A stretch of DNA of 64,000 nucleotides. Source: Sphingobacteriales bacterium (lineage in GTDB: Bacteria > Bacteroidota > Bacteroidia > Chitinophagales > LD1). Numbering within the stretch: the first letter of the stretch is position 1; the number at the start of each line of letters is the position of its first letter. Under the pieces are notes generated by a model, which saw only the letters and a program-made list of their open reading frames with translations, ran no database searches and was not told the DNA's origin. Positions 52,655-61,995 of this stretch are shown piece by piece. Location: NCBI GenBank assembly GCA_018262795.1, contig JADFDM010000003.1, positions 124,001 through 188,000 of the forward strand, read 5' to 3'. The position numbers and the translations under genes were made by a program.

Positions 52655-55600
52655 ATGAAAACTTTTACACTACCCCTTCTTTTTCTGTTTTCTTTTATTG
52701 TCATGTTTGCCAATGCCCAAACTCTTATTAACAAAGTGTGGCAGCAAGCCACCGGGCACCCCACCCTAGCCTACGACCATATAGCCACTGCAAGGCAAGG
52801 CTCCGAAGTATTTATAGTAGGCAACACCTACCACTTTGGCGAGCAAGAAAACTTCCTGATAACCAAATACAACACCAGCGGCACCCTGCTTTGGCAAAAA
52901 GAATTTAACAGCCTGACAGACGACCGCGACTTTGGCATGGATGCCTACATAAAAGGAACCCACCTGTATGTAACCGGCTTTAGTTGGGACTCGGTAAACA
53001 ACGATGCCGATATTGTTACATTAAAACTTACCTTAGACAGTGGCAACACCGTGTGGACGGCCACCTATGCCGGCACCTACGGAGGCTACGATGCTGCCGC
53101 AGGCGTACGGGTTGACAACAGCGACAATGTATATGTAGCCGGTAGCGAACAAACCGGAATAATGGATAGCAGGATGGTAGTCATTAAATACAACTCAGCA
53201 GGCAGCCAGCAATGGATAAGCGGCTACGACAGCACCGGCTACTTTGACGGTGCCGTAGCCCTTGATATAGATGCCAGCGGCAGCCGTCTAAAAACCATAG
53301 GCTTTAGCGGCTCGGCCTTTAGCAGTTGGGATTTTGTTACCCACGAGTTCAACTCATCGGGCAGCGTAACCGGCTACAGCCGCAGTGCCAACCCCAACGG
53401 AGGCATCAGCCAACCCATAGGCTTTACACAAGATTACAGTGGCGACCTATATGTACTCGGCAACATAGCCCTTAGCCCCACCAACAACGATATTAAACTC
53501 ATTAAATACGACACCCTGTTTAACCAAGTATGGGTACGCACCTTTGGCTGTGCCGATAGCCTGGACGATGAAGCCACCGCCATTGCCATTGATGCCCAAG
53601 GCAAAGTACTCATCAGCGGCTTTACCAGCCGCAGCAACGGGGCTAACGATATGCTTACCCTCAAATACGATAAAAACGGCAACATAGTATGGAGCCGCAC
53701 CATCTCCTCGCCCGACCTAAGCCAAAACGCCACCGGCCGCGACATTAAAGTAGAAAACAATGCCAACAGCACCATCTATGTAACCGGCAAAAGCTATAAC
53801 AACAGCAACTACGACTACCTGACCGCCAGCTACACCAAAGATGGCGACCTGCGCTGGGTAAAGTATTTTGACGACAGCACCGGAAGTAATGATGTAGCCA
53901 TCGACATAATGCTCGACATTAGCAACAATGTAATTGTAAGCGGCATTTGCACCAAGGACACCAATACCAGGTATGTGAGTGTGAAGTATGAGCAGTGGGA
54001 GGTCGACACCGCTAAATTTTATGACTCTGCTTATGCCCCCATCTGTAATAGATATCAAATAGTTCTTCGCCTAGATAGTGCTGCTGTAATTAAAGATAGT
54101 ATTGACAAGATAGATATTCAGTTTTCGAACCCTTCTTTTTTTCTAAAACAATATGCGATTGATTCAATAAACAAAAAATTATCAAGCTTCCTTGATAGAG
54201 CCATAATCAGTCGTGCTTACCCCCAAATGAAAACAGACGTAACATTCACTATTACTCGACTAAATGATACTATCCCCGTGCCTAGTTTATGGACAACTTT
54301 AATAATAAATTACAATTCTTCTGGTTCCTTACCTAGAATCCTTGATTCATTAGAGACCCTTTTCCCTATAGTTCGCTGGGCTGAACCAAACTATCTGTTT
54401 CAACCATCGTCACCTAACGATCCTAATTTTTCGAATCAAATATCTTTACTTGATCCCGGACACCATGGTGGAGATATAAATGTAGGGCCTGTTTGGGATA
54501 ACTACCACGAATACGGCAAGCCATTTGTAAAAGTTGGAGTACTTGACCAAGGAATAAACAGGGTATATGACGATTTTGGGAATTCAAATCCTGATAAGGT
54601 TGACGGATACAATTTTTCTAGTTGGGGAAGTGTTTATGATTACTCGGGAGGTGGTTCTGGTCAACATGGTAATATGGTTGCAAGCGTTATTGGTGCTATA
54701 GGAAATAACAATATCCAAATTGCAGGTATTGCGGGTGGTAATTCAACAAACGCAACCGATTTGGGCGTAAAATTATACGGAATGAAAATTGAGGGGGCTT
54801 TTGGAGTTTCTAATTCAGCAGTATTATCTAACGCTATAGCCCAAAGTTCATTAAACGTACCATCTTGGAATTATGGGTGGGGTTTAGACATTATAAATAT
54901 AGCATACAACGCATACATTAATCATAATGTAAATGGCAACGTAGTTGCAGGAAGTCCATTCTATGGAATTTCGGAAGCACTCCATTTTGCGAACAGATGT
55001 CAAGTAACTACTGTTATCTCTTCGGGTAATAGCGGTAGTAATTTTGTACAGGCACCTGCAAATGTTGAGGACAATTGGGTGATTGCAGTTGGTGGTTCAG
55101 ACATAGATGGACTTTACAATAACTCCAGCTACGGGTCTCAAATAGATGTAACTGCCTCATCCGATGGTTCTGCTTGGTCTATTTTTAGTAACACAACAAC
55201 AACTAGCTTTAATGGCACATCATCGGCCTCATCTCATGTTTCAGGTGTTGCGTCTCTTTTGCTGAGTTATTATAACTCGTCTACACCCAATATTAGTAAC
55301 CTTGCACCGGAAGATGTTGAATTTATTTTACAGGAAAGTGCTAAGGATATTTCTGCGAGCCCTGCAAGTGCTGGCATTGATGATTATACGGGCTACGGTT
55401 TATTGAATTGTGGTAGTGCTTTTGATTTGGTTTCTAAGCCAACTCATACGGTTAAACATTTAAGCTACCTTAAAAATCAGTTACAGTTTCATAGTGTAGG
55501 GCACATCATTACTACCACAAATACAGGTATGGATGTTTACTTAACCAGCGATTATGGAAACTTTGAAGGTGGCACTTTATATAAAGCAGATGTAAGAGAA

Positions 55601-56206
55601 GTGGAAAGCACTTTTAATTATTCTAACATGATTAACTTTGGCGATGTTGTACAGTATGGGTGGTCTCGCAGCAGCGCATCCAGTTTGTTTGGGCCTACAT
55701 ATATCCTACTCGGCAATAGTTTTGTTAATCCTTACGAAAAGTTAAGTATTTCTACGCCTGCCGACCAGTCAAGCATTTCGTTTAAAAGCTATGCGTATAA
55801 AATGTATGATGCGCAAACAAATACATTTTTAGGTTGGATTCCTTTCGAGCCAAGTAATATAAATGGTCTGCATCCATCACTTGAAGAAGCTTTCACTCTG
55901 CTAATCTATAATGCGTCTATCACAGGAGAAAATGCTATAGAGGAAGGAGGGGACTATATTTCCGTTTTCCCTAATCCATCTCAATTTGCCAATACTATTC
56001 TTATCAATCAACAGCAAGCAGAGAATGTAAGTATTATGCTATTTAATACGGAAGGAGAATTTATGAAGCAAGTAACAGACCAAAATTTTTCAAAAGGTTC
56101 GCATACCTTTGATGTGAATATTCAGGATATTGCAACTGGCATCTACTACTATAAGATAAGGCTTGGCAATAGCAATACCTATCATCTTAAATTCATGAAA
56201 CTTTAA
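52655..56206 (+). CDS. Secreted S8 protease with N-terminal SBBP propeller and T9SS sorting domain (compositional chimera)
   Basis: An 1183-residue protein. After the signal peptide (LPLLFLFSFIVMFANAQ), residues ~25-445 form an SBBP-type propeller (NFLITKYNTSGTLLWQKEF, MVVIKYNSAGSQQWI, DMLTLKYDKNGNIVWSRTI). A propeptide-like region leads to the S8 domain with Asp631 (KVGVLDQGINRVYDD), His671 (SGQHGNMVASVIGAIG) and Ser856 (FNGTSSASSHVSGVASLLLS). HGT is HGN here. The type A sorting domain ends it (ISVFPNPSQFANTI, IATGIYYYKIRL). Codon use changes abruptly near 54000 (residue ~449): before it codons are GC-rich and C-ending with many ATA; after it they are AT-rich. The joint matches the propeller/protease border. 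It heads the accessory array that follows. Confidence 0.9.
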   Translation: MKTFTLPLLFLFSFIVMFANAQTLINKVWQQATGHPTLAYDHIATARQGSEVFIVGNTYHFGEQENFLITKYNTSGTLLWQKEFNSLTDDRDFGMDAYIKGTHLYVTGFSWDSVNNDADIVTLKLTLDSGNTVWTATYAGTYGGYDAAAGVRVDNSDNVYVAGSEQTGIMDSRMVVIKYNSAGSQQWISGYDSTGYFDGAVALDIDASGSRLKTIGFSGSAFSSWDFVTHEFNSSGSVTGYSRSANPNGGISQPIGFTQDYSGDLYVLGNIALSPTNNDIKLIKYDTLFNQVWVRTFGCADSLDDEATAIAIDAQGKVLISGFTSRSNGANDMLTLKYDKNGNIVWSRTISSPDLSQNATGRDIKVENNANSTIYVTGKSYNNSNYDYLTASYTKDGDLRWVKYFDDSTGSNDVAIDIMLDISNNVIVSGICTKDTNTRYVSVKYEQWEVDTAKFYDSAYAPICNRYQIVLRLDSAAVIKDSIDKIDIQFSNPSFFLKQYAIDSINKKLSSFLDRAIISRAYPQMKTDVTFTITRLNDTIPVPSLWTTLIINYNSSGSLPRILDSLETLFPIVRWAEPNYLFQPSSPNDPNFSNQISLLDPGHHGGDINVGPVWDNYHEYGKPFVKVGVLDQGINRVYDDFGNSNPDKVDGYNFSSWGSVYDYSGGGSGQHGNMVASVIGAIGNNNIQIAGIAGGNSTNATDLGVKLYGMKIEGAFGVSNSAVLSNAIAQSSLNVPSWNYGWGLDIINIAYNAYINHNVNGNVVAGSPFYGISEALHFANRCQVTTVISSGNSGSNFVQAPANVEDNWVIAVGGSDIDGLYNNSSYGSQIDVTASSDGSAWSIFSNTTTTSFNGTSSASSHVSGVASLLLSYYNSSTPNISNLAPEDVEFILQESAKDISASPASAGIDDYTGYGLLNCGSAFDLVSKPTHTVKHLSYLKNQLQFHSVGHIITTTNTGMDVYLTSDYGNFEGGTLYKADVREVESTFNYSNMINFGDVVQYGWSRSSASSLFGPTYILLGNSFVNPYEKLSISTPADQSSISFKSYAYKMYDAQTNTFLGWIPFEPSNINGLHPSLEEAFTLLIYNASITGENAIEEGGDYISVFPNPSQFANTILINQQQAENVSIMLFNTEGEFMKQVTDQNFSKGSHTFDVNIQDIATGIYYYKIRLGNSNTYHLKFMKL

Positions 56207-56209
56207 GCA

Positions 56210-57238
56210 GTGAAATCTTTAACTCCTTTTTCTTTGTTTTTAGTTATCATTTTATCCTTAGTGCAATGCACTAAGGATAAAGTTAATCCTCCGCCCATTG
56301 GTTGTACAAATACAGATTCTTTCCTATTACTTGTTAAGGACACTGTGTATTCTATTCCTTTCCCATGGCAAGCACCACTGGGTTGGCAGACACTGACAAA
56401 CAGAAGGTATCAATATTTCCAACCTTGTTTCAATCCTAAAAATAAAGACGAAATGATATATGTGCGGCAGGACAGGACAGTAAGCCTTACTAATTGTGAG
56501 TTACGGATTTTTGATTTATGTACCGGTGAAGATAGATTACTCTATGCGTATGCGTATAAAGGAGCACATCCACAATGGTCGACCACTGGCTGGATTGTTT
56601 TTGAGGCTGCTGTTGGTCATCTCTGGAAGATTCGCCCTTCTGGTCAGGGCTTAATTCAGTTAACTTCCGGCACTGACCAGTTTGCTGTTTGGAGTCCAGA
56701 TGGTTCCAAAATCATATTCAGAAGATCTGGTTACAATACTATGCTGTGTGACTCCAATGGTGTTATACTTGACACTTTGACTGAATTGTTAGAAGCTAAC
56801 AATTGGTCATGGGATGTTTCTGATAAATTGACAACTGCCACTAACAATTCAGCTACAGGTTATGGTGTCGGTTACTTTGATTTTAATGCTAACGACTATG
56901 TTTCTGTTAAAGCACTTGATTTAACTAATCATAATTGTTTTCTATTACGCAGCACTAAGTGGTTTAACCAAAATACTCAAATAGTATATTCTTTCATTTG
57001 TGGTATAGAAGCAACTGATGTTTCTACCAGGCAGACTACAACAATAAAACAAGGAGGTGATAATGTAAGTTATGGACGCATCAGTGTAGCTCCGGATGAG
57101 CAAAAAATTGCGGTGGAAAGAATAGATATTGCACCTTACGATACGATAGGCACAAGTTATTTTGAGAGTTATGAGTACAATATTTATCTCATGAATAAGG
57201 ATGGCAGCGATTTGAGAAAGATTAAATTTCCTGAGTAA
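56210..57238 (+). CDS. TolB/WD40-like beta-propeller lipoprotein
   Basis: A 342-residue predicted lipoprotein that starts with GTG at 56210, only 3 bp after the protease stop. Lipobox: FLVIILSLVQCTKDK (Cys20). The body shows TolB-like propeller repeats: FNPKNKDEMIYVRQD, HPQWSTTGWIVFEAA, LWKIRPSGQGLIQLTSGTD, AVWSPDGSKIIFRRSG, and a final IYLMNKDGSDLRKIKFPE. It is clearly related to the lipoprotein at 60539-61486 (shared FNP-N-DEM, W--GWI-F, G--L-QLT pattern). No enzyme function is visible; a surface or periplasmic binding role is inferred. It is followed by an orphan sorting-domain fragment in another frame. Confidence 0.83.
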   Translation: MKSLTPFSLFLVIILSLVQCTKDKVNPPPIGCTNTDSFLLLVKDTVYSIPFPWQAPLGWQTLTNRRYQYFQPCFNPKNKDEMIYVRQDRTVSLTNCELRIFDLCTGEDRLLYAYAYKGAHPQWSTTGWIVFEAAVGHLWKIRPSGQGLIQLTSGTDQFAVWSPDGSKIIFRRSGYNTMLCDSNGVILDTLTELLEANNWSWDVSDKLTTATNNSATGYGVGYFDFNANDYVSVKALDLTNHNCFLLRSTKWFNQNTQIVYSFICGIEATDVSTRQTTTIKQGGDNVSYGRISVAPDEQKIAVERIDIAPYDTIGTSYFESYEYNIYLMNKDGSDLRKIKFPE

Positions 57239-57257
57239 GAATTTTGTCCAAATATAA

Positions 57258-57467
57258 TGTACATTTAACTTACAAGGAGACAAAGAGGAGCAATGCGCAA
57301 TCAACCTGTATAACTCATTTGGTCAACATGTAAAAATTCTGTATTCAGGAAAGGCAAGTTCTTTGTCCGAAAGGTTTAGTATAGGTCAACTTCAGTCTGG
57401 TCTGTACTATATCCGTATTGATTTCGGTAATAACTCAAAAGGATATAAATTGTTAACCGTTAAATAG
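57258..57467 (+). pseudogene. Orphan T9SS type A sorting domain (no gene body)
   Basis: Open from just after a TAA (57255-57257) to a TAG (57465-57467), without a usable start. From 57267 it encodes about 66 residues with a typical sorting-domain end: CAINLYNSFGQHVKILYSG, ERFSIGQLQSGLYYIRIDFG, GYKLLTVK. It is not in frame with the lipoprotein upstream, which ends at 57238, and a lipoprotein should not carry such a domain. The next gene starts 7 bp after its stop. It is a left-over C-terminal module of a lost or replaced cargo gene. Confidence 0.85.
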
Positions 57468-57474
57468 TTTCTTT

Positions 57475-58146
57475 ATGAAAACAATTGCGTTACTTATTCT
57501 ATCAATATTTTGTTATTCCTACAACGTTGCACAGTCTACATCATTTCATGTTGATAGTTTAAAGGTTTTTCCTGCTTCGCCAAATATTGACGATTCAATT
57601 ACATTTATTGCCTACACTAGACATACCACAACAGGCACTGGATTTTATGATAGAGTAGTCATCGAAATTGATTCCGTCATAAGTATATTTTCTTGTTACA
57701 CCAACGGGTCATTCCCCGCTGTACATAATGTAAATGACACCATTCCAATTGGTAAATTACAAGTTGGGGATTATACGATCAGGTTTATTCTTCGTTTTCT
57801 CTTGCCATGGGAATTAGATTCCGTTGAGCCATGTTTAACGAATCCTTACTACGATTCCTCCTTTCTTAATATCACCGTAAGCAACATAAACAATGTTGAG
57901 TTGTATGGCAGCAAACAATTGTTACTTCACCCCAACCCCGCCACCCACCAACTCACCCTTACCATACCACCGCCAAGCCAAGCCACTACCGCCACCATTA
58001 CCGATATAAACGGCAGGCAGCTGCGCAAAGAACAGTTACTTAACGCCACCAACACCCTTAACATAGCCGAGCTACCCGCAGGGCTTTACTTTATAACCGT
58101 GCAAAGTGCTGAGCAACGATGGGTGAGACGGTTTGTAAAGCAGTAA
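57475..58146 (+). CDS. Small secreted protein with GC-rich T9SS sorting domain (chimera)
   Basis: A 223-residue protein: signal peptide (TIALLILSIFCYSYNVAQ), a ~120-residue beta-rich body (FHVDSLKVFPASPNIDDSI, VGDYTIRFILRFLLP) with no recognised family, and a type A sorting domain from about residue 144 (LLLHPNPATHQLTLTI, ATITDINGRQL, IAELPAGLYFITVQ, RRFVKQ). The body is AT-rich; from about 57905 the sequence switches to GC-rich, C-ending codons with ATA for Ile, the same style as the N-terminal propeller of the protease at 52655. The switch falls at the border of body and sorting domain, which suggests that the domain was swapped in by recombination. It starts 7 bp after the stop of the orphan sorting domain. 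Confidence 0.85.
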   Translation: MKTIALLILSIFCYSYNVAQSTSFHVDSLKVFPASPNIDDSITFIAYTRHTTTGTGFYDRVVIEIDSVISIFSCYTNGSFPAVHNVNDTIPIGKLQVGDYTIRFILRFLLPWELDSVEPCLTNPYYDSSFLNITVSNINNVELYGSKQLLLHPNPATHQLTLTIPPPSQATTATITDINGRQLRKEQLLNATNTLNIAELPAGLYFITVQSAEQRWVRRFVKQ

Positions 58147-58220
58147 CTCATCACGCTGTTCGCTATGTTAGCAAAGCGCATCGCGAGCGAGAGATAGCAG
58201 TAATTTTTAATCGCCACTTG

Positions 58221-58237
58221 GCAGATTATAAATCTGC
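58221..58237. repeat. Small palindrome in the gap after 58146
   Basis: GCAGATT-ATA-AATCTGC, a perfect 7-bp stem. It lies in the 58147-58399 gap, which otherwise holds no gene I can support, only this palindrome and the hairpin at 58351-58379. Confidence 0.5.
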
Positions 58238-58350
58238 TTTATCTGTTCCACAACATGCCCGATGGAACCTGTTGCGAAGCGGGATGAAAGACTTAGATTT
58301 GAGTAATGACAAGTTGTAGTTATAATGGCGAGAATTTGGAGTTTTGTGTG

Positions 58351-58379
58351 CGCAGAGTCCCGCAAGCGGAGACTCTGCG
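58351..58379. repeat. CGCAG-type hairpin, copy A
   Basis: CGCAGAGTC (58351-58359), an 11-base loop CCGCAAGCGGA, and GACTCTGCG (58371-58379). Copy B at 60483-60511 has the same length and nearly the same loop, but its stem differs by compensatory changes (AGAGTC/GACTCT here, AGGTTC/GAACCT there). This stem conservation without sequence conservation points to selection for structure. Confidence 0.75.
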
Positions 58380-58399
58380 GGGGGGAAAATCATTTGGGA

Positions 58400-58507
58400 T
58401 TTTCGCAAAATGCAAAAGTAGCGTTACCTTCTCTTTCGGCAGGTATTTATACTGTTCAACTATACTACAACGGCAAGTTCGTTCATAGGAAGTTAATTAT
58501 TAATTGA
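58400..58507 (+). pseudogene. Orphan T9SS sorting-domain end fragment
   Basis: The frame ending at TGA 58505-58507 encodes VALPSLSAGIYTVQLYYNG followed by KFVHRKLIIN, the last ~30 residues of a type A sorting domain. Upstream in this frame only repeat sequence is found (the hairpin at 58351-58379), so the rest of the gene is gone. The stop codon overlaps the ATG of the next gene (TGATG), as if that gene had been coupled to a complete cargo gene. Confidence 0.8.
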
Positions 58508-59526
58508 TGAAAGGCAGGCTAAAAGCATTCGTTTCTTTTGTAAGTGTTATTACGCTTGTGCTAACGTCTTGCTTTGTTACGAAAAGGAATACCAGTGTAT
58601 CATTGCCATCTTTTAAGCTTATTGAAGATACTTCGACTTGTTATCATTCGCAATTCGAAATGGGATACGAAGACCATTTTGTAGGAGAGCAGCGGAATAT
58701 ACAACCGTCAAGTAATTTTCATGATTCCCCGATTGTTACATTACTCTATTCCACAGACACCGCTCTATTTTTTCAAAGAAGTGATACAATTTATCAATTT
58801 GGACTTTTTTCTCAGATTACGCAGATAATTGCTATCCATGAACAGTTAAATAACCCGCCATTAGCCAATAGTATTATATATAGTAATAAAGGAAAAGTTA
58901 TTTACTATACGCGAAAAAATATTGTTATGCTGTATGACTTTCATACTAACGCCTTGATACCAACCAACCAACCACAACAATTTTTCAATCCTTTTGTTGG
59001 GTTTTATTCAAAAATAACAGCCTACTCTGATTCCACCTTTTGTTTTACCAACAACTACATTACTTATATCACCAACAAGACTTTACATGTCATAGATTCT
59101 TTCCCTTTTGCAGCAACTTACACTTATCCCCAATGTGATGCGCAACAAAGCAGAATTATTTCATTGCTCAATTTCGAAAAACTACTTCAAGGGGAAAACG
59201 AAGTTGCGATTTACAATACTACCTCAAAAACAACACAACTGTATATGTTGCCTATTGTCGAAATGGGGGCTAACACTATCAATGCTGTTCGCTTATCGCC
59301 TGTAGATACAAGTGTCATATATTATTGCCAAAATAATAGTGGCATCTTTAGCTATAACACTTCTACAAAAAGTATAAACACTATTGCTGAATCTTGCCCA
59401 CAGCGTGCTTTCATAAATTTTTGCGTAACACCCAACGGCAAAGCAATTCTTGCACAAACGCGGACAGCAATATATGCTATATCAAATCTTACTGACACCC
59501 CATATGTGCGCGTTTTATTTGAGTGA
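58507..59526 (+). CDS. Lipoprotein of unknown function
   Basis: A 339-residue predicted lipoprotein from the ATG at 58507 (a TTG at 58504 is also in frame). The signal and lipobox are LKAFVSFVSVITLVLTSCFV. The body is beta-rich and AT-rich, with propeller-like spacing (TLLYSTDTALFFQRSDTIYQ, SIIYSNKGKVIYYTRKNI, KAILAQTRTAIYAISNL), but I recognise no family. It lies in the array between two orphan sorting domains; the one downstream (59519-59695) overlaps its last codons in another frame. Related in general design to the lipoproteins at 56210 and 60539. Confidence 0.75.
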   Translation: MKGRLKAFVSFVSVITLVLTSCFVTKRNTSVSLPSFKLIEDTSTCYHSQFEMGYEDHFVGEQRNIQPSSNFHDSPIVTLLYSTDTALFFQRSDTIYQFGLFSQITQIIAIHEQLNNPPLANSIIYSNKGKVIYYTRKNIVMLYDFHTNALIPTNQPQQFFNPFVGFYSKITAYSDSTFCFTNNYITYITNKTLHVIDSFPFAATYTYPQCDAQQSRIISLLNFEKLLQGENEVAIYNTTSKTTQLYMLPIVEMGANTINAVRLSPVDTSVIYYCQNNSGIFSYNTSTKSINTIAESCPQRAFINFCVTPNGKAILAQTRTAIYAISNLTDTPYVRVLFE

Positions 59527-59695
59527 CAAATTACATTCTATCACGGGCAGTCTTATCTACAGTTCCGTTACGTCTTATGAAGAAGTTGGCACACACACTA
59601 TAACATTGCCTACATTTACGTGGGCTAGTGGTTTTTACTTGGTAAACGTGAGAGTAAATGGGCAAAATAATGTGGTCAAGGCTGTTAAGAATTAG
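59519..59695 (+). pseudogene. Orphan T9SS sorting domain after the 58507 gene
   Basis: In a frame different from the lipoprotein gene that it overlaps by 8 bp, this segment encodes LSDKLHSITGSLIYSSVTSY, then VGTHTITLPTFTWASGFYLV and NVRVNGQNNVVKAVKN, ending at TAG 59693-59695. That is the C-terminal two thirds of a type A sorting domain. There is no credible start. The next gene's ATG (59700) comes 4 bp after its stop. Confidence 0.8.
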
Positions 59696-59699
59696 AAAC

Positions 59700-60425
59700 A
59701 TGTTTTGGGTAATCATAGCATCAGCCTTCTCTTGCTGTAAAACATCGAACCATTTTATCGGTAATGAGGTAGGTGTTTGCGAAGACCTTGATAGCTTTGT
59801 TATCCAACATTGGAATTACGGCAAGCCTGACAGTGCTTTTATGGGTCATTTTTATTACAATAAATGGACTGCCTTTGATAGTTGTGTTCTTAAACTTGAT
59901 ACCGCCCACTTTCAAAAAATATTTGGTCGTGGTTCTTCTTTACACACTGGTCAGCTAACATATTTCACACAAGGCAGGTATGAAAACAGAATATTAGCAG
60001 TTCACTATTTGCAATCAGGTCAAATTCAATACCTACTATGGGAAGACATAATTACTGACAAAGCGGATATTCTTCATCTTCCTAACTACATTACAAATAT
60101 TTACGTGGATTCCTTCCAAGTTATTAGCCAATTAACTGAACCGCCTAAGTTTACTATCAACCTGGATAGTGCTTCAAAAAAAATAGACTATCCTCAATTT
60201 GAAAGAGATAATCTCATTGCGGGTGATGGATATGCAACATTTATAATTTCAGCAAATGGACTGATTGACAGCGTTTGGCTTACTAAGAAAGTTTCACAGG
60301 GGATAGACAAAGCTATTTTAAGATTTGTAAAAAGTTTACCTGAGTTTATTCCCGCAAAGAAAAATGGAAAAAACGTTGCTTGTACCTGTCAATTGGTGTT
60401 TCATTTTAAAGTAAAAGAAAATTAA
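59700..60425 (+). CDS. Lipoprotein with a TonB C-terminal-like domain
   Basis: About 241 residues from the ATG at 59700 (MFWVIIASAFSCCKTSN), where the double Cys gives a plausible lipobox; an in-frame ATG at 59658 lies inside the orphan sorting domain and is rejected. Residues ~160-241 resemble the TonB C-terminal fold (GDGYATFIISANGLIDSVWL, GIDKAILRFVKSLPEFIPAK, NGKNVACTCQLVFHFKV). Unlike true TonB it has no membrane helix/proline linker, so an energy-transducing role is unlikely; many Bacteroidota proteins reuse this domain. AT-rich like its neighbours. Confidence 0.78.
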   Translation: MFWVIIASAFSCCKTSNHFIGNEVGVCEDLDSFVIQHWNYGKPDSAFMGHFYYNKWTAFDSCVLKLDTAHFQKIFGRGSSLHTGQLTYFTQGRYENRILAVHYLQSGQIQYLLWEDIITDKADILHLPNYITNIYVDSFQVISQLTEPPKFTINLDSASKKIDYPQFERDNLIAGDGYATFIISANGLIDSVWLTKKVSQGIDKAILRFVKSLPEFIPAKKNGKNVACTCQLVFHFKVKEN

Positions 60426-60451
60426 AAAAAGATGAACTGCGTTCGATAATG

Positions 60452-60469
60452 TGGTTTGTAAAACAGTAA
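60452..60469 (+). pseudogene. Vestige of a sorting-domain end (…FVKQ stop)
   Basis: TGGTTTGTAAAACAGTAA encodes WFVKQ and a stop. It nearly matches the last bases of the 57475-58146 gene (GGTTTGTAAAGCAGTAA, RFVKQ stop). It is too short to prove alone, but lies exactly where the array pattern predicts another sorting-domain end. Confidence 0.4.
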
Positions 60470-60482
60470 GGTTATTTACTTG

Positions 60483-60511
60483 CGCAGGTTCCCACAAGCG
60501 GAGAACCTGCG
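60483..60511. repeat. CGCAG-type hairpin, copy B
   Basis: CGCAGGTTC (60483-60491), loop CCACAAGCGGA, GAACCTGCG (60503-60511), followed by GGGGAAGCAAAAC. Same architecture and 11-base loop as copy A at 58351-58379, with compensatory stem changes. It lies 27 bp before the ATG of the 60539 gene, in its leader. Confidence 0.75.
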
Positions 60512-60538
60512 GGGAAGCAAAACAGAAAATTTACTACT

Positions 60539-61486
60539 ATGAAACGCATAATCAGATTATGGATATACATTTCGTTTGCTTTGTTGCCATCATGCGCCAA
60601 AGATAAAACACAACAGTCTTATGATGAATGCAGCGATTTCCGAGAGATATATCTTCCGCAAACAGGATTTACTCCCGGGATTAGCTATGTCATTCCTGAT
60701 AGCGTACATTTTAAATATGGGGTTTTTAATCCGAACAATTCCGATGAAATGGCTTACTGGGGTGGAAATACAAAATGGAATTTTTACAGTTACAATCTGG
60801 TGACCAAACAACGGGTAAAGCTGACGGATTTAATACCCCAAAATCCGCCTAAGTGGCATCGCAACGGTTGGATTGCCTTTAACGCGGAAGACAACAACAT
60901 TTACAAAGTAAAATCAAATGGCGACAGTTTAACGCAACTCACTTTTACTCGCGATTGCTTCATGCCGGAATGGAACTTATCGGGAGATACAATTATCTGC
61001 AAAAAGGCATCTCCATCGCCTGGTGTGTATTTTATCAAGGCCGATGGTTCGTTAGTAACGTACGTAAACTATAACCAATATTCACTAAGCTTTCCATCAT
61101 GGGCACCCTTCGATTCAATTATAATTAATACTTCCGGGTTTGGCCTTTCGCAATTAAATTTTTTTGATTCTTCATGGACCATTTTGAAAATTGGAAATTC
61201 TTCAGCATTAGGTGCTTGTTGGTTCCCTGATGGTAAGCGCATCCTTTGGAGTGTAGATTATCAGCCAATGCTTTTAGATTATGCTACACTTGAGCAACAT
61301 GCTTTAGTCCCCTATTGCCAAAAGGAACATTATATGTATCCCTCCATATCGGGTGATGGGAAATATGCTTTGCTTTCTATGGAAACGCAAGTGTTTGTAT
61401 CAACTGGTATCCCATTTAGTTCATTTAGAATTGTTAGAATAGAAATAGCAACAGGCAAAGAAGAAATTTTGGATTTGCCCGATTAA
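60539..61486 (+). CDS. TolB/WD40-like beta-propeller lipoprotein (paralogue of 56210-57238)
   Basis: A 315-residue predicted lipoprotein: WIYISFALLPSCAKDK gives the lipobox Cys. Propeller repeats include FNPNNSDEMAYWGGN, PPKWHRNGWIAFNAEDNNIY, VKSNGDSLTQLTFTRD, MPEWNLSGDTIICKKAS and CWFPDGKRILWSVDYQPM. Both this and the 56210 protein share the CAKDK/CTKDK mature start, the FNP-N-DEM strand and the GWI-F block, so they are paralogues. Function unknown; probably outer-membrane- or surface-anchored. It is the last gene of the array and is followed by a strong stem-loop at 61566. Confidence 0.82.
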   Translation: MKRIIRLWIYISFALLPSCAKDKTQQSYDECSDFREIYLPQTGFTPGISYVIPDSVHFKYGVFNPNNSDEMAYWGGNTKWNFYSYNLVTKQRVKLTDLIPQNPPKWHRNGWIAFNAEDNNIYKVKSNGDSLTQLTFTRDCFMPEWNLSGDTIICKKASPSPGVYFIKADGSLVTYVNYNQYSLSFPSWAPFDSIIINTSGFGLSQLNFFDSSWTILKIGNSSALGACWFPDGKRILWSVDYQPMLLDYATLEQHALVPYCQKEHYMYPSISGDGKYALLSMETQVFVSTGIPFSSFRIVRIEIATGKEEILDLPD

Positions 61487-61995
61487 GTAAATCTTTGCCC
61501 TCCACAGTCCTCCATTTAAAAAATCTGCGGCTACTAAAACATTAACGTAACATTACGAGCTTCCTAAAGCCCCCTTCGGGAGTTTGGGGGCTTTCCCTTC
61601 GGGGGTTTGGCGGCCTTGTCATTGCGCGGGCTTTTCCAAAACACAAACCGAACAAAGCCCAAAGCAACCTTCCGCTTTGTATTTCCTAAATCCGTTCCAT
61701 CTGCCATATCCGCGTTATCCGTGTGCCAATGTATCTTAAGCCTTCGGGGGTTTGGGAGCTTTTTTAAGCAGAGATAGTCGAAGACCGGAGTGGTAAACTC
61801 AAATTCCTCTCATCATCCACCCCACAAACAAATCCGCAGATTCTCAAAATTGAAAACCTGCGGAGGCACAATGATGGTTTGTAATCCTGCTATTTCAAAA
61901 TTTCACCGCAGGTAAACACAGGTTTACACGGATAAAGTGGTACTCATCTCTGCGTTTATCTGAATGGGAATTATTTGGTTTAAAAATACGGAGGG
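61487..61995. other. Gene-free, repeat-like region
   Basis: Besides the stem-loop at 61566 I see an imperfect CCGCAG...CTGCGG palindrome (61834-61863), related in its ends to the hairpins at 58351 and 60483, and GTAAAC-ACAG-GTTTAC (61912-61927). No open frame with protein-like composition is present. Confidence 0.55.
61566..61594 (+). terminator. GC-rich stem-loop after the lipoprotein array
   Basis: AAAGCCCCC (61566-61574) and GGGGGCTTT (61586-61594), loop 11, then TCCC. It lies 80 bp past the stop of the 60539 gene. A related CTTCGGGGGTTTGGGAGCTTTTTT run occurs near 61741-61765, so both may be copies of a repeat. Confidence 0.5.

What the first reader, a model, noticed from the sequence alone, without database searches (positions are those of the whole stretch)
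56200..60540. Array in which each gene starts at the stop codon of a T9SS sorting domain, three of them orphans
Seen: sorting-domain stops at 56206, 57467, 58507, 59695 (and a vestige at 60469) are followed by new genes at 56210, 57475, 58507 and 59700, i.e. at +3, +7, overlap and +4 bp. Three of those domains (57258-57467, 58400-58507, 59519-59695) have no body in frame. Known: sorting domains are the variable-cargo address tags of the type IX system. Inference: gene bodies have been replaced or inserted while the 3' sorting module stayed behind, forming a cassette array comparable in logic to orphan-module arrays of Rhs/CDI loci. I do not know of this being described for T9SS cargo.
Basis: partly seen in the sequence, partly recalled or inferred. 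Interest (0 to 1): 0.85.

Follow-up and report, generated by a model that had tools for sequence, protein, structure and literature searches.

The report
Leftover tails of lost secreted genes
Between intact genes this bacterium keeps short leftover ends of lost secreted-protein genes, most still touching the neighbour gene that follows; a related species keeps a nearly full copy in one tested case, so these look like relics of an eroding gene array rather than parts of a swapping machine.

Summary
The pattern is real. Orphan 1 (57258-57467) passes Pfam's cut-off for the T9SS sorting tail; orphans 2 and 3 fall below it (17.1 and 16.4 of 27 bits) but a genome-specific profile finds them. They are best read as 3' stubs of lost cargo genes in front of the gene that followed the cargo. 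Orphan 1 has a nearly full-length counterpart: in sister genome G008 a subtilase cargo ends in a tail 52% identical to it and is followed 6 bp later by an ortholog of window gene 57475. Reciprocally, the subtilase intact in the window is a bare tail stub in G008, 3 bp before the same lipoprotein gene. Subtilase followed by a PD40-like lipoprotein occurs in 16 of 27 loci across Bacteroidota. Ten short stubs begin at profile positions 4 to about 50, so no crossover site at the domain edge is shared. Stubs are tightly followed by a gene more often than intact tails (8 of 9 against 49 of 202; with all doubtful short frames kept, 10 of 18). In another lineage a stub is a tandem copy of its neighbour's tail. 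Best reading: birth and death of cargo-partner gene pairs, tails sheltered by the partner. What the partners do is unknown.

The parts
52655..56206 (+). Intact T9SS cargo: repeat-rich N half, subtilase domain, sorting tail (about 55964-56182)
   Evidence: Pfam Peptidase_S8 70.4 bits and PF18962 35.1 bits; its tail is an orphan stub in sister genome G008:C15
56210..57238 (+). Partner lipoprotein 1, beta-propeller (PD40-like)
   Evidence: PD40 E 0.008, 16.6 bits, below cut-off 20.9; model mean pLDDT 82.5, TolB and other propellers among the top folds; 78% ortholog in G008 directly after the stub of the same cargo. Lipoprotein signal judged by eye
57258..57467 (+). Orphan 1: sorting-tail stub without body; first in-frame start codon is an internal TTG at codon 36
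   Evidence: PF18962 29.1 bits; 51.5% over 66 aa to the tail of a near-full-length subtilase cargo in G008:C10; start codons
57475..58146 (+). Partner gene A: small cargo with its own intact tail
   Evidence: PF18962 46.9 bits; ortholog directly after a subtilase in G008:C10, homologs after a subtilase in G011, G010, L218, L230, ortholog after a stub in G017
58352..58378 (+). Hairpin element just before orphan 2
   Evidence: GCAGAGTCCC...GGAGACTCTGC
58400..58507 (+). Orphan 2: last part of a sorting tail (profile 43-74)
   Evidence: 17.1 bits in Pfam, below cut-off; E 0.0047 with the genome profile; no relative at E 0.01 in the sequences compared
58507..59526 (+). Lipoprotein-like gene, no match in 17 other genus genomes
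   Evidence: lipoprotein signal judged by eye
59531..59695 (+). Orphan 3: sorting-tail stub (profile 26-72)
   Evidence: 16.4 bits in Pfam, below cut-off; E 1.9e-4; 44% over 50 aa to the tail of full-length gene C4:8319-10010 in the same genome
59700..60425 (+). Lipoprotein-like gene with TonB_C domain
   Evidence: PF03544 34 bits; relatives match only its C-terminal part
60453..60469 (+). Vestige: last codons of a gene-A-type tail
   Evidence: 16 of 17 bases as the end of gene A
60484..60510 (+). Hairpin element between the vestige and gene 60539
   Evidence: GCAGGTTCCC...GGAGAACCTGC
60539..61486 (+). Second PD40-like lipoprotein, distant paralog of 56210-57238
   Evidence: PD40 19.3 bits, cut-off 20.9; 32% in a local match to 56210-57238

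Best explanation
The array is a set of cargo-partner gene pairs in different stages of decay. The ancestral unit is a T9SS cargo gene (here a subtilase with a C-terminal sorting tail) followed within a few bases by a partner gene (a beta-propeller lipoprotein, or a small cargo of type A). Pairs duplicate in tandem and rearrange; cargo bodies are then deleted from the 5' side, or never copied. The last 25 to 80 codons of the cargo, in some loci more, persist because they abut the start of the partner, so that a deletion or duplication that damages the partner is not kept. Shown: the stubs, a near-intact counterpart with the same next gene for orphan 1, the reverse case in the sister genome, the scattered stub starts, and the excess of tightly following genes. 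Inferred: that shelter by the partner is the cause, and that orphans 2 and 3, for which no counterpart with the same next gene was found, arose the same way.
For: Orphan 1 with gene A: subtilase with gene A in G008:C10 (near full length, one in-frame stop), G011:C468 and G010:C68 (both cut at the 5' side by contig ends); without body also in G017:C5. Reciprocal case: the window's intact subtilase tail is a 77-codon stub (74% identical) in G008:C15, 3 bp before the lipoprotein ortholog. Subtilase then PD40-like lipoprotein in 16 of 27 loci of Bacteroidota; then a gene-A relative in 5 of 27; something else or nothing in 6. An order subtilase-lipoprotein-subtilase-cargo stands in L234 (that last cargo is not a gene-A relative outside its tail). 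Tandem copy: the L227 stub shares 22 of 34 residues with the tail of its own neighbouring subtilase, against 4 to 13 of 34 with nine other tails. G008:C8 has stub-B1-stub-B2. Stubs followed by a gene: G000 4 of 5 against 31 of 138; G008 4 of 4 against 18 of 64 (the fragment C15:169410 taken out of the intact count); pooled 8 of 9 against 49 of 202, p 1.4e-4. Nine stretches of the genus match the subtilase N half at E 1e-35 or better, none a 5' stub inside a contig (two N-terminal pieces are cut by contig ends, one piece lies inside another cargo); against five 3' stubs or fragments: orphan 1, G008:C15 two, G010:C68, G017:C5.
Against: Orphans 2 and 3 have no identified counterpart with the same next gene. 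The stubs compared show no excess of amino-acid change, which neutral relics should show unless young; the scan sees only frames that are still open, so old relics are missed. One stub (C16:83908-84264) has no gene behind it. Numbers are small and depend on which short frames count: with every doubtful one kept the result is 10 of 18 against 49 of 202, p 0.0095. The G008 stretches were chosen partly because short frames had been listed there. 3' and 5' stubs were sought by different searches.
Confidence: 0.75

Rival explanations
1. Cassette exchange: new bodies are recombined in at the 5' edge of the sorting tail, leaving old tails behind.
For: In G000:C12 the tail and following flank look nearly identical between two neighbours (by eye) whose bodies share only 33%, so a recombination block can begin near the tail edge. 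In G008:C15 other cargo genes stand upstream where the subtilase body would be. CDI orphan modules are a precedent (PMC4927057, passages). The genes behind orphans 2 and 3 could not be shown to be old partners.
Against: Ten short stubs start at profile positions 4 to about 50, and other frames keep 45 or more further residues. Where testable, the genes behind the stubs are old partners.
Confidence: 0.1
2. The stubs are kept by selection of their own, for instance as a leader or coupling element for the next gene.
For: NG86: stub X in G000 against G008 Ka 0.337 with synonymous sites saturated, like gene B behind it (0.33-0.38); no acceleration against G005. ATGA overlap with gene B in G000, G008 and G005. 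5' edges of stub X lie within about 10 bases of each other in two species, by eye. Orphans 2 and 3 and several other stubs have an in-frame start codon.
Against: Orphan 1 and the G000 stub X have no ATG, GTG or TTG before codon 36 of 69 and codon 63 of 93. Stubs differ in length from 25 to about 80 codons. The scan finds only open frames, so it favours young or constrained ones.
Confidence: 0.11
3. Assembly or sequencing errors split intact cargo genes.
For: The genome is a draft of 19 contigs; two homologous cargo genes in relatives carry in-frame stops.
Against: Upstream of each window orphan stands another gene, not a cargo body; comparable stubs occur in G008, G010, G017 and L227.
Confidence: 0.03

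Closest known systems
Orphan toxin/immunity modules of CDI and Rhs loci
   Same: 3' end of a large secreted-protein gene plus the small gene behind it, displaced or left in same-direction arrays, sometimes beside transposases (PMC4927057, passages; a transposase pair that looks IS3-like by eye abuts one G008 stub)
   Different: The retained 3' end is the sorting tail, not a variable toxin; no shared joint at the domain edge; immunity role of the partner not shown
KLIKK protease/potempin pairs of Tannerella forsythia
   Same: T9SS protease genes each paired with a lipoprotein gene (PMC4404884 and PMC7296668, passages)
   Different: There the lipoprotein gene is small (360-550 bp) and upstream; here it is about 1 kb, downstream and a predicted beta-propeller; inhibition not tested here
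Ordinary gene remnants in decaying tandem arrays
   Same: Fragments of varying length between other genes
   Different: Here they are tied to a tightly following gene and recur in several species

Membership tests
T9SS sorting tail (PF18962) | score over Pfam cut-off of 27 bits | tested here: inconclusive
   Orphan 1 29.1 (met); orphan 2 17.1 and orphan 3 16.4 (not met)
T9SS sorting tail (PF18962) | domain runs to the last residues before the stop | tested here: met
   2-4 residues left after the match for all three
CDI/Rhs orphan module | 3' end of a large secreted gene plus its next gene, without the body | tested here: met
   Orphan 1 with gene A; G008 stub with lipoprotein 1; not shown for orphans 2 and 3
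CDI/Rhs orphan module | retained 3' end encodes a variable toxin domain | tested here: not met
   Only sorting-tail matches were found over cut-off or with the genome profile in the three orphans
CDI/Rhs orphan module | partner gives immunity | not testable with these tools
   No assay
Protease/potempin pair | lipoprotein gene adjacent to a T9SS protease gene | tested here: met
   16 of 27 subtilase loci with a PD40-like partner
Protease/potempin pair | small lipoprotein located upstream of the protease | tested here: not met
   Partner is downstream, about 340 aa
Protease/potempin pair | partner inhibits its protease | not testable with these tools
   No assay
Exchangeable cassette array | common breakpoint at the 5' edge of the tail | tested here: not met
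   Stub starts at profile 4, 8, 10, 11, 11, 21, 26, 43, 45 and (inferred from 25 matching codons) about 50

The most novel reading that the evidence does not exclude
The partner genes are inhibitors or immunity proteins for T9SS proteases, and the array is an orphan-immunity array of the type IX system: proteases are lost or exchanged while partners, with the tail stub attached, are kept because they protect against kin that still export the protease.
Probability: 0.1. Interest if true: 0.8.

Novelty: new variant of a known kind. Interest (0 to 1): 0.45.

Why it matters
It suggests that some T9SS cargo genes come in conserved cargo-partner pairs, that the cargo can vanish while its sorting tail stays in front of the partner, and that this has happened more than once in related bacteria. 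Sorting-tail counts used to estimate secretomes should exclude such stubs. The widespread pair of a subtilase and a beta-propeller lipoprotein is a concrete, testable candidate for a protease with a dedicated surface partner.

Tried and rejected
Searching relatives of lipoprotein 1 in genome contigs by peptide pattern found none. The neighbouring MscS and Mfd genes did not anchor the locus: Mfd is in 18 of 18 genus genomes but on another contig than the array in G008. A Bacteroidetes promoter motif recalled from memory (TAnnTTTG): two hits in five upstream stretches, 23 on the window's + strand, not informative. The gene-A Ka/Ks was misaligned (22% identity) and is not used. The G008_2 row was out of register and replaced. 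My first G008 count (19 of 65) held the fragment C15:169410 as intact; corrected to 18 of 64. Hairpins: 17 in 923 kb of G000 and 28 in 828 kb of G008 with a loose rule, and a weak control; a narrow family with both arms has four copies in the fetched G000 sequence, two of them in the array, and one relative before the lipoprotein-1 homolog of G009. They mark some joints, not orphans 1 and 3, so they are not part of the proposed mechanism. Dropped from the stub counts: C4:102532 and C17:160844 (own signal-like start by eye; not followed by a gene), C12:150647 and G008 C8:502874 (frameshifted tails of the gene before; not followed), two marginal G000 frames (C14:11282, C18:23482; not followed), G008 C14:180461 (contig end; followed), C8:509026 (140 aa, uncertain; followed), C15:84552 (not followed). 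Literature searches for orphan or remnant sorting tails (0, 1, 20, 2 and 915 papers held enough terms; at most 12 listed per call) showed no such account in the titles and abstract starts listed.
Full report
What is there. The window is contig C13:124001-188000 of a 3.48 Mb draft genome. From 52655 the order is: subtilase cargo with an intact sorting tail, lipoprotein 1, orphan 1, gene A (small cargo with intact tail), hairpin, orphan 2, lipoprotein-like gene, orphan 3, TonB_C lipoprotein-like gene, vestige, hairpin, second PD40-like lipoprotein.

Are the orphans sorting tails. Orphan 1 passes the Pfam cut-off; orphans 2 and 3 do not. A profile built from the 146 tails listed for this genome recovers all three, with the match ending 2 to 4 residues before the stop. 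Orphan 1 was among the 146, so its E-value is flattered; 2 and 3 were not.

Where they come from. Orphan 1 matches the tail of a subtilase in G008:C10 (51.5% over 66 aa) and in G011 (42%), and in both the next gene is a relative of gene A, 54% over 222 aa in G008, 6 bp behind the subtilase stop. The G008 subtilase has one in-frame stop near residue 166; the G011 and G010 copies are cut by contig ends. In G017 an orphan-1-like tail (40%) stands before the gene-A ortholog in a 143-codon frame too short for a subtilase. The reverse holds for the window's intact subtilase: in G008:C15 only its last 77 codons remain (74% identical), 3 bp before the ortholog of lipoprotein 1, which is itself frameshifted there. 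Homology begins just after a palindromic element. G000 has no second match to the subtilase half of the cargo at E 1e-30. Thus each of the two species keeps a near-complete copy of one subtilase and a stub of the other. For orphan 3 the best match is the tail of another full-length cargo of the same genome (44% over 50 aa), whose gene order was not examined; for orphan 2 none was found.

How general it is. In 923 kb of this genome (the 146 listed tails with flanks; the list scored 150 of 214 candidates) five stubs were counted; four are followed at -4 to +7 bp by a gene, against 31 of 138 intact tails. In 828 kb of G008, partly chosen for its short frames, the four counted stubs are all followed, against 18 of 64. 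Pooled, 8 of 9 against 49 of 202, p 1.4e-4; keeping every doubtful short frame, 10 of 18, p 0.0095. Further fragments: G010 L046 4243-4695 (subtilase 3' fragment judged by its tail and a GWxP motif read by eye, next gene +5), G006:C209 near a contig end, and L227, where subtilase, lipoprotein, stub, lipoprotein, lipoprotein follow each other. The L227 stub shares 22 of 34 residues with the tail of its own subtilase and 4 to 13 with nine other tails, so it is best read as a tandem copy. In G008:C8 a stub and gene B occur twice in tandem; the first stub abuts a transposase pair that looks IS3-like by eye.

The partner. Among 27 subtilase loci from named genomes (7 of them contigs already seen, by length), the next gene is a PD40-like lipoprotein in 16, a gene-A relative in 5, and something else or nothing in 6. 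The model of lipoprotein 1 (mean pLDDT 82.5; residues 24-60 below 50) is a beta-propeller, with TolB and other propellers among the top folds and no hint of a specific function. Lipoprotein relatives also stand without a subtilase beside them in the fetched stretches of G009, G012 and G007, so they can occur without it.

Mechanism. Stub starts are spread over profile positions 4 to about 50, and longer fragments exist. This is what random deletion or duplication ends look like when the 3' limit is set by the next gene, and not what exchange at a domain edge looks like. Nine stretches of the genus match the subtilase N half at E 1e-35 or better; none is a 5' stub inside a contig, though two N-terminal pieces are cut by contig ends and one piece (residues 331-472) sits inside a different cargo in G008:C15. 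Weaker matches to its repeats were not examined.

Evidence that does not fit easily. The stubs compared show a coding pattern of change: subtilase tail against G008 stub Ka 0.133 and Ks 1.30, lipoprotein 1 0.138 and 1.65; stub X in two species, without body in both, Ka 0.337 with saturated synonymous sites, like gene B. Either the stubs are young, or some are kept by selection. The scan requires open frames and so favours both. Orphan 1 and the G000 stub X lack an early start codon, but orphans 2 and 3 and several others have one. A role of the stub as RNA, leader or coupling element is not excluded.

Comparison with the known. CDI and Rhs orphan modules have the same anatomy of 3' end plus next gene, with transposases nearby (PMC4927057, passages). 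The KLIKK proteases of Tannerella forsythia are secreted proteases with a near-identical C-terminal domain, each preceded by a lipoprotein gene (PMC4404884, passages); these are reported to be inhibitors (potempins), for which PMC7296668 cites unpublished data (passages). Polymorphic toxins of Bacteroidetes lie near T9SS genes (PMC7073777, passages). None of the passages seen describes orphan sorting tails. The resemblance to protease-inhibitor pairs is a lead; it was not tested.

Verdict. A real, recurrent pattern with a mostly ordinary likely cause: relics of cargo genes sheltered by their partner genes. The conserved cargo-partner pair is the part worth following.

Noticed in passing
G000:C12:149421-150928 and G008:C8:504393-502871: Gene B in one species and B2 in the other are both 447-aa frames whose sorting tail lies intact in another frame (read as -1), a frameshift at about the same place in two species.
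   Followed up: partly
G000:C12 from 148660 and from 150716: Sorting tail plus 3' flank look nearly identical between two neighbouring cargo genes (by eye) whose bodies are 33% identical; the block begins near the start of the tail.
   Followed up: partly
window 52655-54094 against G008:C10: The N half of the subtilase cargo (to about residue 480) is about 65% identical, the C half about 33%: possibly a mosaic gene.
   Followed up: partly
window 58352-58378, 60484-60510; C13:53361, 54001; G009:C102 about 8923: Small family of hairpin elements with paired changes in the stem arms; three of these five lie shortly before a lipoprotein-like gene or its stub.
   Followed up: partly
window 61572-61617: Repeat of the type CCCTTCGGGGGTTTGG; a similar piece lies in the linker before the tail of G008 gene B2 (by eye).
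   Followed up: no
G000:C4:102532-102861 and C17:160844-161173: Two 110-codon frames with a signal-like start and a tail-like end, preceded by the same short element.
   Followed up: no
L227 9500-12368, L223 3992-6275, L239 9660-11943: Tandem PD40-like lipoprotein genes behind a subtilase in other Bacteroidota; of these three a stub was seen only in L227.
   Followed up: partly
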